A stretch of 64,000 nt of DNA from Sphingobacteriaceae bacterium (GTDB lineage: Bacteria; Bacteroidota; Bacteroidia; Sphingobacteriales; Sphingobacteriaceae): assembly GCA_029266635.1 (NCBI GenBank), contig JAQSWM010000005.1:186001-250000 (forward strand). Reading direction: 5' to 3'. The translations under genes were made by a program, and so were the position numbers. Each line of letters starts with the position of its first letter. Positions within the stretch are counted from its first letter, which is position 1. Shown here piece after piece: positions 28,362-32,553 of this stretch. The notes beneath the pieces are model-generated. The model had not been told where the DNA came from. It worked only from the letters and a program-made list of their open reading frames with translations, and ran no database searches.

Positions 28362-31300
28362 TTGAACGTACGCGATATTATAAATTTATACAAAGCTGAT
28401 GAACGGGTTTTAGCTGTAGCGAAGGCACTCAACTCGGGCAAAAATCCGCGGATACATTTGAAGGGGCTGGTGGGATCGAGCGATGCGATGCTGGCGTTAG
28501 CTTTGTATTTTCTGCAACACAGGTTCTTTGTTTTCGTGCTGCCGGACCGTGAAGAAGCCGCGTATTTTCTAAGTGACCTGGAGAGCCTTTTAGAAAAAGA
28601 AGTGCTGCTGTTCCCTTCCTCTTATCGAAAATCTTTCGACTTCACACAGGTTGACAGCAGCAACGTTTTGCAGCGAGCCGAGGTGCTGAACGAGCTTAAT
28701 CACTCTCCGGAATACGGGAAGTTGGTAGTTACTTATCCTGAAGCTCTGGCAGAAAAGGTGATCAACCGCGAACAGCTCGAAAAGAACACACTGGAAATAA
28801 CTTCGGGCAACAAAATAGATATTGAATTCATCAGTGAGTTTCTGGTTGAATACGATTTTGAAAGGGTGGATTTTGTGTACGAGCCAGGGCAGTTTTCTAT
28901 CCGCGGAGGCATTGTAGATATATTTTCCTTTTCGCACGATCTTCCTTACCGGGTAGAATTTTTCGGAGATTTTATAGAAAGTATCCGAACTTTCGAAATC
29001 GAGGATCAGCTTTCGATTGAAACCGTGAAAAGCATAACGATCGTGCCTAATGTGCAGTCGAAATTCCTTTCAGAGAACAACGTATCGTTCCTTGAGTACA
29101 TCGACAAGAACTCAGTAGTCTGGATGGATGATGTGCAGTTTACGATTGACATTGTGCGGGAAGGCTACAAGAAAGCATCAGAGTTGTGGAATGCATTGTC
29201 GGCGGAAGAGAAGACACAAAATCCACAATGGATTGATCCGAAATATAATTTCAGCAGTGAAAAGTTCCTGGCAGATCAGCTTGGAGACTTTCCTGTTATC
29301 GAGTTTGGAAAGCAGTTCTTCTATACTCCGACAGAGGTCTTCCATTTCGAAATCAAGCCTCAGCCATCATTCAATAAAGATTTCAACCTGCTCATTCACA
29401 ACATCAAGCAAAATGATGCAGCTAAAATCAGCAACTTCATCTTCACTGATTCAGCGAAACAGGTTGAGCGTCTGTACAGCATTTTCGAAGACATCGACAA
29501 AACGGTCCAGTTCACGCCGGTCAATATTTCCTTGCGGGAGGGTTTTATAGACCACGAGCAGAAAATTGCCTGCTACACCGATCACCAGATATTCGATCGA
29601 TATTACAAGTACAAGCTTAAGAAGGGATATGTGCGCTCACAAGCCATCACACTGAAAGAGCTCCGGGAACTTAAGCCCGGCGATTACATTACTCATATCG
29701 ATCACGGAATTGGCAAGTACGCAGGGCTGGAGAAGGTGGAAGTGAATGGGAAAACCCAGGAGATGATCAGGCTCATCTATGCCGACAACGATCTGCTTTA
29801 CGTGAACATCAATTCCCTAAACCGCATTTCAAAGTATTCCGGTAAGGAAGGCACCGTTCCGAAAATGAATAAGCTTGGTACCGATGTCTGGGAAAAGCTG
29901 AAGAAAACCACAAAAAAAAAAGTTAAAGATATCGCCCGCGACCTGATCAAGCTTTACGCTGTCAGGAAGTCGCAAACAGGGAATGCCTTTCATCCGGATA
30001 CGTATTTGCAAACTGAACTGGAAGCTTCATTTATCTATGAAGACACTCCAGATCAGGAAAAAGCTACCGCCGATTTGAAAAAGGACATGGAGGCTCCGCA
30101 TCCTATGGATCGCCTAATTTGCGGCGACGTGGGTTTCGGGAAAACCGAAGTGGCAATTCGGGCAGCGTTCAAGGCCGTCGCCGATAGCAAGCAGGTGGCT
30201 GTTTTAGTTCCAACCACCATCCTCGCCTCACAGCACTATAAAACCTTTACCTCACGTCTAAAAGGTTTCCCTTGCAATATTGATTACATCAACCGTTTCA
30301 AATCGGCAAAGCAAGTTAAGGAAACACTTCAAAAGTTAGCGGAGGGGAAAGTTGACATCATTATTGGTACGCACCGGCTGGTGAGCAAAGACATCAAGTT
30401 CAAAGATCTGGGACTGCTTATAATTGACGAGGAGCAGAAATTTGGAGTTGGCGTAAAAGAGAAACTGAAGCAAATGCGGGCGAATGTAGATACCCTTACG
30501 CTCACCGCAACACCAATTCCAAGAACCCTCCATTTCTCGTTGATGGGCGCCCGGGATTTGAGCATCATCAGCACACCGCCGCCCAACAGGCAGCCGGTTG
30601 TAACCGAGCTGCACGTGTTTAATGACAAGCTTATTAAGGAGGCGGTGGAGTATGAGATTGATCGCGGCGGTCAGATTTTCTTCATACACAACCGGGTGCA
30701 GGATCTGCCAAATCTTGGTGGAATGATACAAAAGCTGGTGCCCAAGGCCCGCATTGGCATTGCGCACGGGCAGTTGGAGGGCGACGCTCTTGAAGATGTG
30801 ATGTTGCAGTTTGTGAATCATGAAAAAGATGTGCTGGTAGCAACCACTATCATCGAAGCTGGGCTTGACATTCCCAACGCGAACACGATCATCATCAACC
30901 ATGCGCACATGTTTGGGCTGAGCGATTTGCACCAGATGCGGGGTCGTGTTGGCCGCTCAAATAAAAAGGCTTTTTGTTACCTGTTGAGCCCACCGCTTTC
31001 TACGCTCACATCCGAAGCACGCAAACGCCTCAGCGCAATAGAAGAATTTTCAGACCTCGGAAGCGGGTTCAATGTGGCTATGCGTGACCTCGACATCCGC
31101 GGAAGCGGGAACTTGCTGGGTGCAGAACAGAGTGGGTTTATTGCCGAAATCGGCTTTGAGATGTATCATAAAATCCTTGATGAAGCCATTCAGGAACTGA
31201 AAGACGATGAGTTCAAGGAGCTGTTTAATGATGACAAGCCACGACCGTACATCTCTTTCGAGAAGATCTCTCTGAAGAAGAACGTTTTGAGAGGCTACTT

Positions 31301-31496
31301 TATCAGCGATCAACAATCTGCTTACTTTGAGACTGAACAATTCAGCAATGTGCTCAGGTTTGTGCAATCGCACCCGCGACAATGCAATTTAAAAGAAGTG
31401 AAAAATACACTTCGACTGAGCATTGAACAAGTGCGGAATATAGAGGAGGCGATAGGGATGTTGCAGGAAGTGAGCCAGCCCGTGCTTAGTCCTTAA
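28362..31496 (+). CDS. mfd: Transcription-repair coupling factor Mfd, lacking most of the C-terminal TRCF segment
   Basis: Displaces stalled RNA polymerase and recruits UvrA. The UvrB-like N-terminal domain is present (FVLPDREEAAYFLSDLE, RGGIVDIFSFSHDLP), as are the polymerase-interacting domain (HIDHGIGKYAGLE, about 445) and the RecG-like translocase: Walker A GDVGFGKTEVA (about 587), the IDEEQKFG box, TATPIPRTL and QMRGRVGRS. The start is a TTG at 28362: no in-frame ATG exists upstream, and the next is about 40 codons in. After DEFKELF the sequence passes in frame through about ten residues (955-965) into ISFEKISLKKNVLRGYF. The stretch with ILIPD-Y and DRFGP-type motifs that normally separates these blocks, some 75-80 residues, is missing. 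This explains 1044 residues against the usual 1110-1150. The 3' end overlaps the convergent TonB gene by 11 bases. Confidence 0.93.
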   Translation: MNVRDIINLYKADERVLAVAKALNSGKNPRIHLKGLVGSSDAMLALALYFLQHRFFVFVLPDREEAAYFLSDLESLLEKEVLLFPSSYRKSFDFTQVDSSNVLQRAEVLNELNHSPEYGKLVVTYPEALAEKVINREQLEKNTLEITSGNKIDIEFISEFLVEYDFERVDFVYEPGQFSIRGGIVDIFSFSHDLPYRVEFFGDFIESIRTFEIEDQLSIETVKSITIVPNVQSKFLSENNVSFLEYIDKNSVVWMDDVQFTIDIVREGYKKASELWNALSAEEKTQNPQWIDPKYNFSSEKFLADQLGDFPVIEFGKQFFYTPTEVFHFEIKPQPSFNKDFNLLIHNIKQNDAAKISNFIFTDSAKQVERLYSIFEDIDKTVQFTPVNISLREGFIDHEQKIACYTDHQIFDRYYKYKLKKGYVRSQAITLKELRELKPGDYITHIDHGIGKYAGLEKVEVNGKTQEMIRLIYADNDLLYVNINSLNRISKYSGKEGTVPKMNKLGTDVWEKLKKTTKKKVKDIARDLIKLYAVRKSQTGNAFHPDTYLQTELEASFIYEDTPDQEKATADLKKDMEAPHPMDRLICGDVGFGKTEVAIRAAFKAVADSKQVAVLVPTTILASQHYKTFTSRLKGFPCNIDYINRFKSAKQVKETLQKLAEGKVDIIIGTHRLVSKDIKFKDLGLLIIDEEQKFGVGVKEKLKQMRANVDTLTLTATPIPRTLHFSLMGARDLSIISTPPPNRQPVVTELHVFNDKLIKEAVEYEIDRGGQIFFIHNRVQDLPNLGGMIQKLVPKARIGIAHGQLEGDALEDVMLQFVNHEKDVLVATTIIEAGLDIPNANTIIINHAHMFGLSDLHQMRGRVGRSNKKAFCYLLSPPLSTLTSEARKRLSAIEEFSDLGSGFNVAMRDLDIRGSGNLLGAEQSGFIAEIGFEMYHKILDEAIQELKDDEFKELFNDDKPRPYISFEKISLKKNVLRGYFISDQQSAYFETEQFSNVLRFVQSHPRQCNLKEVKNTLRLSIEQVRNIEEAIGMLQEVSQPVLSP

Positions 31497-32553
31497 ACAC
31501 GATGTGCATCTGGTAAGATGTTCTCACGGGCTTGCCAGCAATGATCCCGGGTTTCCACTTGGGTGATAGGCGCATCAGCCTAAGCGCCTCATCATCTTGC
31601 GGGCCGCCGATTCCCTTCACGAGTTTCACGTCCTTTAATTCGCCGGTTTTCTCCACCACAAAAGAGAGTTCAACTTTTCCATTATTGGCATTTTGCCTTG
31701 CCCTCAAAGGATAACGTGAGTTTGTAGTCAGGTAATTGATCATCTGTTTTTCTCCTCCCGGGAATTCAGGCCTCGATTCAACAGCGTTTAAATTGTAAAC
31801 CCTATTGTCTTCCGCAGGTGCCGTATTGGTTTGCGGAGGTGGCAACGGTTGGGGTTGAGTAGGGGTTTGCTGAGGAAGATTTGGGGCAGGGTTTGGCAGA
31901 ACAGTGTCTATGCTGTCGGGGAAAGGATTCACCGGGTACGACTCGAAGTTTTTGATTTCAAGTTCCCGAAGAGAAACAATCTTGCCATTCCCATCAGTGA
32001 TAATCTCAAATTTGATGTCTGCAGATTGTTGCTCTTTCCTTGATGGACGGAAAAAGCTTTCTGTCGCCCAATAGGTTGCAACTATGCGGTCATCCTGACG
32101 AGTGAATTCCAGCGAAGAAACAATCCAGTTTCGCTTCAAATTCTCCATGTCTGCCCGCCTCTTCCAGTACAAATCTTTTAACCTCGAATAGTTGAGGTTG
32201 TGGTAATTATAAAAGGTTTCCGTGATGGGAGCGAAGTAGCTTGGCGGATCGAAGTAGCCGCGGCTCTGGTCGTAATAAAATGCCTGGATGAACTTGATCA
32301 GCGATTGGCGTACTTCTTCATCGCTCATTGAGGATGTTTCGTTCAGTAATGCGCCGCTATCTGTGGCTTGGGTGATCTGCTGCTTTTCCTTCCGGAAAAC
32401 CTTCCATGGATCGTCAACGAATAATGTAAGATAGCCCAGAATTACAATGATCCCGCCCAGGATGATGCCCATGTAAGTAAGCGACTTATCTTTCGCAACC
32501 TCGGTAATAGGTACTTCAATTTCCTTATCCGGTTCCTGATCTTCTATTGCCAT
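31486..32553 (-). CDS. TonB-like energy-transducer protein with an inserted middle domain, 355 aa
   Basis: A cytoplasmic acidic N-terminus is followed by one transmembrane helix (about 28-47, MGIILGGIIVILGYLTLF). Next comes a globular region of about 150 residues (70-215) with an NTF2-like alpha/beta feel (IKFIQAFYYDQSRGYFDP, ATYWATESFF, IKFEIITDGNGKI), then a proline/glutamine-rich spanner (220-245) and a TonB C-terminal domain (GGEKQMINYLTTNSRYP, GKVELSFVVEKTGELKDVKL, RLMRLSPKWKPG). TonB proteins hand inner-membrane energy to outer-membrane receptors. No exbB/exbD lies nearby. The extra domain is unusual. It is 1 base from the cdsA stop codon. Confidence 0.8.
   Translation of the reverse strand: MAIEDQEPDKEIEVPITEVAKDKSLTYMGIILGGIIVILGYLTLFVDDPWKVFRKEKQQITQATDSGALLNETSSMSDEEVRQSLIKFIQAFYYDQSRGYFDPPSYFAPITETFYNYHNLNYSRLKDLYWKRRADMENLKRNWIVSSLEFTRQDDRIVATYWATESFFRPSRKEQQSADIKFEIITDGNGKIVSLRELEIKNFESYPVNPFPDSIDTVLPNPAPNLPQQTPTQPQPLPPPQTNTAPAEDNRVYNLNAVESRPEFPGGEKQMINYLTTNSRYPLRARQNANNGKVELSFVVEKTGELKDVKLVKGIGGPQDDEALRLMRLSPKWKPGIIAGKPVRTSYQMHIVFKD

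What the first reader, a model, noticed from the sequence alone, without database searches (positions are those of the whole stretch)
31200..31262. Mfd lacks most of its C-terminal autoinhibitory (D7/TRCF) segment
The frame goes from DEFKELF almost directly (residues 955-965) into ISFEKISLKKN. The 75-80 residues with the ILIPD-Y and DRFGP-type motifs of the TRCF domain are absent, although the last strand-helix part of D7 remains. In E. coli, D7 masks the UvrA-binding surface of D2, so an in-frame loss could give a constitutively open Mfd. The rest of the protein, including the translocase motifs, is intact.
Basis: partly seen in the sequence, partly recalled or inferred. Interest (0 to 1): 0.6.

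Follow-up and report, generated by a model that had tools for sequence, protein, structure and literature searches.

The report
Mfd missing half its brake domain
A DNA-repair motor protein (Mfd) in this environmental bacterium has lost a clean 74-amino-acid piece of its self-inhibiting tail domain, which its compared relatives keep, so it is probably a naturally unlocked version of a well-known enzyme.

Summary
The mfd gene (28362-31496, +, 1044 aa) has a 222-bp in-frame gap at F966 (31257-31259). All 95 distinct relatives aligned have exactly 74 residues there. Pfam TRCF (PF03461) is absent from the protein and from its genome assembly, but present in 394 of 399 genomes sampled from the family and 364 of 395 from the class. 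No second clean internal loss was found: the seven other Mfds with missing or weak TRCF that I inspected end at contig ends, and one (G217) is very divergent. The lost part is the helical lobe of D7 with the D2-contacting DRF residues. The C-terminal lobe, motor, RNAP-binding domain and UvrA-contact residues remain; UvrA, UvrB and UvrC are present. Engineered E. coli Mfd lacking D7 is derepressed, interacts with UvrA and still does transcription-coupled repair (PMC3025350), so the best reading is a natural, derepressed but repair-competent Mfd. Without reads or a second genome, a strain-level allele or assembly artefact stays possible. Interest is modest: a rare natural counterpart of a known mutant.

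The parts
28362..31496 (+). mfd gene, 1044 aa as called, TTG start
   Evidence: ORF; TIGR00580 936.6 bits over the cut-off of 800; start position in line with relatives (TTG 66, GTG 33, ATG 1 of 100 loci, duplicates and the window included)
28791..29051 (+). D2 / UvrB interaction domain (residues 144-230), with R181, R197, F201 (E. coli R165, R181, F185) kept
   Evidence: PF17757; alignment to E. coli Mfd; R181 and R197 in 96 of 96, F201 in 95 of 96 sequences
29670..29840 (+). RNA polymerase interaction domain (residues 437-493)
   Evidence: PF02559
30045..30959 (+). translocase motor (residues 562-866)
   Evidence: PF00270 and PF00271
31257..31259 (+). deletion junction, codon F966 (TTC): 74 codons (222 bp) of D7 missing here; the boundary is ambiguous by this F codon
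   Evidence: 74 residues in 95 of 95 distinct relatives and in 102 of 102 loci whose junction could be parsed, of 139 scanned; TTT or TTC at both ends in 92 of those 102
31260..31475 (+). remaining C-terminal lobe of D7 (residues 967-1038), predicted beta-beta-alpha-beta-beta-alpha
   Evidence: weak models overall; this region is among the better-supported; divergence

Best explanation
A single 222-bp in-frame deletion, perhaps between short TTC/TTTC repeats, removed the helical first lobe (TRCF lobe) of Mfd domain 7 in this lineage. The lobe carried the DRF residues that clamp D7 onto D2. The protein should still bind RNA polymerase and translocate, with its UvrA-contact face no longer masked and its ATPase no longer held off. 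It therefore works like the engineered E. coli Mfd lacking D7: derepressed, able to bind UvrA without first binding RNAP, and still able to do transcription-coupled repair. Shown: the gap, its being the only clean case in the genomes sampled, the loss of the clamp residues, conservation of the UvrA-contact residues, and presence of the Uvr genes. Inferred: folding, derepression and repair competence in this organism.
For: No PF03461 in the protein or the genome assembly. 95 of 95 aligned relatives have 74 residues and DRFG at the gap. The window protein has no other gap run in well-filled columns. E. coli D1048, R1049, F1050 and the E1045 position map inside the lost segment; they are D2 contacts. 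The equivalents of R165, R181 and F185 are kept. UvrA (two copies), UvrB and UvrC match their profiles nearly end to end. E. coli Mfd lacking D7 does TCR in vitro and in vivo, restores mutation frequency decline and inhibits UvrA GTPase. The remnant is not clearly relaxed: dN remnant/body 2.66 over 13 window pairs against 2.70 (SD 0.50) over 78 pairs of relatives.
Against: The E. coli construct lacks all of D7, whereas here a lobe of about 72 residues stays and could misfold or still obstruct D2. On a fixed tree the remnant's terminal branch for the window is 0.386 against 0.219 expected (ratio rank 49 of the 61 sequences with a body branch over 0.02), which would fit mild relaxation. No reads were available and no second genome of the genus appeared in the samples. 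Structure models were poor overall (mean pLDDT 45.5 and 51.5), so how D2 and the remnant sit was not modelled.
Confidence: 0.6

Rival explanations
1. The deletion is real but recent and neutral or slightly harmful: a passing strain-level allele with no adaptive role, perhaps making a partly misfolded Mfd.
For: Seen in one genome only; no other genome of genus g1 appeared in the samples. By mean distance (ratio rank 6 of 96 from the low end) and by dN the remnant is about as conserved as in relatives, as expected if too little time has passed for decay.
Against: The gap is in frame and removes one lobe cleanly, which a random deletion does in at most about one case in three. The rest of the gene is intact. 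The longer terminal branch of the remnant would rather suggest some age.
Confidence: 0.25
2. Assembly or strain-mixture artefact: the real gene is full length and the contig has lost 222 bp.
For: The genome is a draft of 18 contigs at 95.76% completeness, and reads could not be examined.
Against: The frame is kept exactly, there is no leftover TRCF fragment in the assembly, no other gap in the gene, and UvrA, UvrB and UvrC are whole. A repeat of 3-4 bases is far shorter than what normally collapses in assembly (general knowledge).
Confidence: 0.12
3. D7's lost lobe is supplied in trans by another gene.
For: None found.
Against: No PF03461 match anywhere in the assembly at E up to 0.001, although about 4% of the genome may be missing.
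Confidence: 0.02

Closest known systems
Engineered E. coli Mfd lacking D7 (Manelyte et al. 2010, PMC3025350, passages and one section seen; Smith et al. 2007 is cited there and was not seen)
   Same: Loss of the D7 surface that clamps D2, with D2, RID and motor intact.
   Different: The engineered protein lacks D7 as a whole; here only the first lobe is gone and the C-terminal lobe remains. This one is natural.
E. coli Mfd E1045A D1048A R1049A (PMC3025350, passages seen)
   Same: Loss of the D7 residues that contact D2; that mutant is derepressed and can catalyse strand-specific repair in the in vitro assay.
   Different: Point changes in a full-length D7, against deletion of the lobe that carries them.
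Full-length Mfd of relatives (records titled Mucilaginibacter, Pedobacter, Daejeonella and others)
   Same: 78-83% identity for the 37 relatives, same domain order and start position.
   Different: All 95 distinct relatives aligned carry the 74-residue segment.

Membership tests
Mfd / transcription-repair coupling factor | Equivalog model TIGR00580 over its curated cut-off | tested here: met
   936.6 bits against cut-off 800, profile 1-825 of 907
Mfd / transcription-repair coupling factor | UvrB-homology D2 with UvrA-contact residues | tested here: met
   PF17757; R181, R197, F201
Mfd / transcription-repair coupling factor | RNAP interaction domain (CarD_TRCF_RID) | tested here: met
   PF02559 residues 437-493
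Mfd / transcription-repair coupling factor | SF2 translocase domains | tested here: met
   PF00270 and PF00271
Mfd / transcription-repair coupling factor | TRCF domain (PF03461, first part of D7) | tested here: not met
   No match. It is therefore filed as a variant of Mfd that lacks this domain, not as a standard member.
Derepressed (D7-less) Mfd | Loss of the D7 residues that clamp D2 | tested here: met
   By alignment, E. coli D1048, R1049, F1050 and the E1045 position lie in the lost segment
Derepressed (D7-less) Mfd | Raised ATPase and RNAP-independent UvrA binding | not testable with these tools
   Biochemistry needed

The most novel reading that the evidence does not exclude
A whole lineage lives with a permanently unlocked Mfd: loss of the D7 clamp is fixed, and transcription-coupled repair, RNAP removal or Mfd-driven mutagenesis is constitutively altered, perhaps as an adaptation, giving a natural test of why almost all bacteria keep the brake.
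Probability: 0.2. Interest if true: 0.6.

Novelty: new variant of a known kind. Interest (0 to 1): 0.35.

Why it matters
The D7 clamp of Mfd is kept in almost all genomes sampled here, yet in E. coli D7 is dispensable for transcription-coupled repair. A natural Mfd without the clamp lobe would allow a test of what the clamp is for in the wild (saving ATP, sparing UvrA, limiting RNAP removal). The effect is limited because the engineered version is already characterised and because fixation in the species is unproven.

Tried and rejected
Rejected: D7 lobe encoded elsewhere. Rejected: short form as a trait of the family or class. Rejected: other apparent TRCF-less or TRCF-weak Mfds as independent cases. 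The Mfds of G691, G728, G245, G360, G291 and G427 end at contig ends and that of G181 is split over two contigs. G031, G460, G507, G077 and G078 gave only one match each, at 34-39% identity with open frames of 701-797 aa, which I read as RecG; G085 gave a broken match with stops. In the class sample 31 of 395 genomes lacked PF03461: the window, G217, G245, G360, and 27 whose best TIGR00580 match at the 1e-100 threshold was no better than 3.6e-117, or absent, which I read as RecG only. Of those 27 only G077, G078 and G085 were looked at further; G233 has two such matches, so a fragment of Mfd is possible there. Eleven of the 31 are not printed; I inferred them as the handles missing from the list. 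G217 is a very divergent Mfd-like protein (33% identity) whose D7 looks degraded by eye; it was not followed further.

Rows dropped before counts: of 110 loci scanned for a full Mfd frame (L001, L006-L034, L065-L144), 106 gave one. Five (L011, L031, L068, L076, L093) were dropped for want of the N-terminal motif, leaving 101, merged to 96 distinct including the window. L035-L064 were used only in the motif and junction checks. Of 38 relatives picked for the structure alignments I gave 37 and left out L116.

Led nowhere: synonymous distances were not obtained (one search returned -1 for dS), so there is no dN/dS. Structure models were too weak for fold comparison, so no fold search was run. Smith 2007 and Deaconescu 2012 are not held. 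Literature searches for a natural truncated or D7-less Mfd listed nothing relevant.

Full report
What is there. The gene at 28362-31496 (+) encodes a 1044-residue Mfd. It scores 936.6 bits with NCBIfam TIGR00580 (cut-off 800), but the match ends at profile position 825 of 907. Pfam finds the UvrB interaction domain, the RNAP interaction domain and both helicase domains, but lists no TRCF domain (PF03461) at E up to 10. The own genome (3.61 Mb, 18 contigs, 95.76% complete) holds one Mfd and no PF03461 match at E up to 0.001.

The gap. In an alignment of 96 distinct Mfd sequences the window protein shows one gap run of 74 columns (among columns filled in more than 90% of sequences) and no columns of its own. 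All 95 relatives have exactly 74 residues there, and all 95 carry DRFG inside it. The junction is codon F966 (TTC, 31257-31259). In 102 of 102 loci whose junction could be parsed (of 139 scanned, duplicates included) the segment is 74 residues; 92 of these 102 read TTT or TTC at both ends, 59 with the same codon (rows). A deletion between 3-4 base repeats is thus possible but not proved. In a motif check 124 of the 124 loci with a readable anchor kept a DRFG-like motif, and 15 of 139 lacked the anchor; those loci overlap in part.

How rare it is. PF03461 is found in 95 of 100 genomes of the nearest-relative sample, 394 of 399 of the family sample and 364 of 395 of the class sample; the samples overlap and the window genome is one of the misses in each. 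In the family sample the other misses are G031, G460, G507 and G691. The Mfds of G691, and of G728 with a weak match, end at contig ends; G031, G460 and G507 gave only RecG-like matches. In the class sample 31 genomes miss. For 27 of them the best TIGR00580 match is no better than 3.6e-117 or absent, which I read as RecG only, most of them without further look. Of the remaining four, one is the window, G245 and G360 end at contig ends, and G217 is a very divergent Mfd-like protein (33% identity) with a D7 that looks degraded. Three more with weak matches (G181, G291, G427) also end at contig ends. No second clean internal deletion was found. No other genome of genus g1 appeared in the samples, and the one scan of genome contigs (80 of 212 matches kept) gave no relative closer than 72% identity over the C-terminal query; the tool notes that records of the window's own or a very near genome may be left out.

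What was lost and kept. Aligning the full-length relative L006 with E. coli Mfd places D1048, R1049, F1050 and the position of E1045 (Q in L006) in the lost segment. E1045, D1048 and R1049 are the D7 cluster that contacts D2 (PMC3025350, passages), and D1048 and F1050 are named as interface residues in PMC7385628 (passages). The D2 residues R165, R181 and F185, whose joint replacement disrupts the Mfd-UvrA interaction, correspond to R181, R197 and F201 here and are kept. Structure models of the window protein and of the full-length relative L066 are weak overall (mean pLDDT 45.5 and 51.5), but agree in the D7 region. The relative has a helical stretch (helices 985-996, 1001-1015, 1020-1038) followed by a beta-beta-alpha-beta-beta-alpha stretch; the window protein has only the latter, starting at residue 968. 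The deletion thus removes about one lobe of D7.

Selection on the remnant. By mean distance the remnant is not faster than expected (ratio 2.01 against a median of 2.38, rank 6 of 96 from the low end). The dN ratio is 2.66 (13 window pairs) against 2.70, SD 0.50 (78 pairs among relatives). On a fixed tree the window's terminal branch in the remnant is 0.386 against 0.219 expected, rank 49 of 61 by ratio. The first two speak against decay and the third allows mild relaxation, so the age of the deletion is open. The sister sequences are L006 and L009 (support 0.977).

Mechanism. E. coli Mfd without D7 has a raised ATPase, inhibits UvrA GTPase, gives strand-specific repair in vitro and in vivo, and restores mutation frequency decline; repair in vivo ran over a longer time, which the authors link to possible sequestration of UvrA. 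The triple D7 point mutant is derepressed, inhibits UvrA GTPase and gives strand-specific repair in vitro (PMC3025350, passages and section 8). Later papers also describe D7 as the auto-inhibitory domain that covers the UvrA-binding module (PMC9177983 and PMC12424862, passages). Two copies of UvrA, and UvrB and UvrC, are whole in this genome. The most likely reading is therefore a natural, derepressed and repair-competent Mfd. This is inference: no activity was measured, and a D7 with only its second lobe was not among the E. coli constructs that I saw described.

Artefact question. The kept frame, the absence of a stray TRCF piece in the assembly and the otherwise gap-free gene speak for a real deletion. 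Reads were not available. As a loose control, ten other large ORFs of the window were scanned; most Pfam matches span nearly the whole profile, one (Peptidase_M14) is partial, and one protein had no match at E up to 1e-10. This control says little about 222-bp losses.

Novelty. Searches of the held library for a natural truncated or D7-less Mfd listed nothing relevant; the library lacks most subscription papers. The thing is a natural variant of a known kind, close to a known engineered mutant.

Noticed in passing
window 28362 and other Mfd loci: The conserved Mfd start position is TTG in 66, GTG in 33 and ATG in 1 of 100 loci (duplicates included; 6 of 106 frames did not fit the pattern; start assumed from conservation), a near-constant non-ATG start that may keep Mfd levels low.
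   Followed up: partly
L174 (genome G217): A very divergent Mfd-like protein (33% identity over query 435-1025) with a D7 that looks degraded and falls below PF03461 detection; a run of unknown residues lies in it.
   Followed up: partly
window 31486-31496: mfd and the convergent gene 31486-32553 (-) overlap by 11 bp at their 3' ends.
   Followed up: no
own genome G000 C11:71137-79858: Two full-length UvrA matches lie on the same strand about 3.3 kb apart.
   Followed up: no
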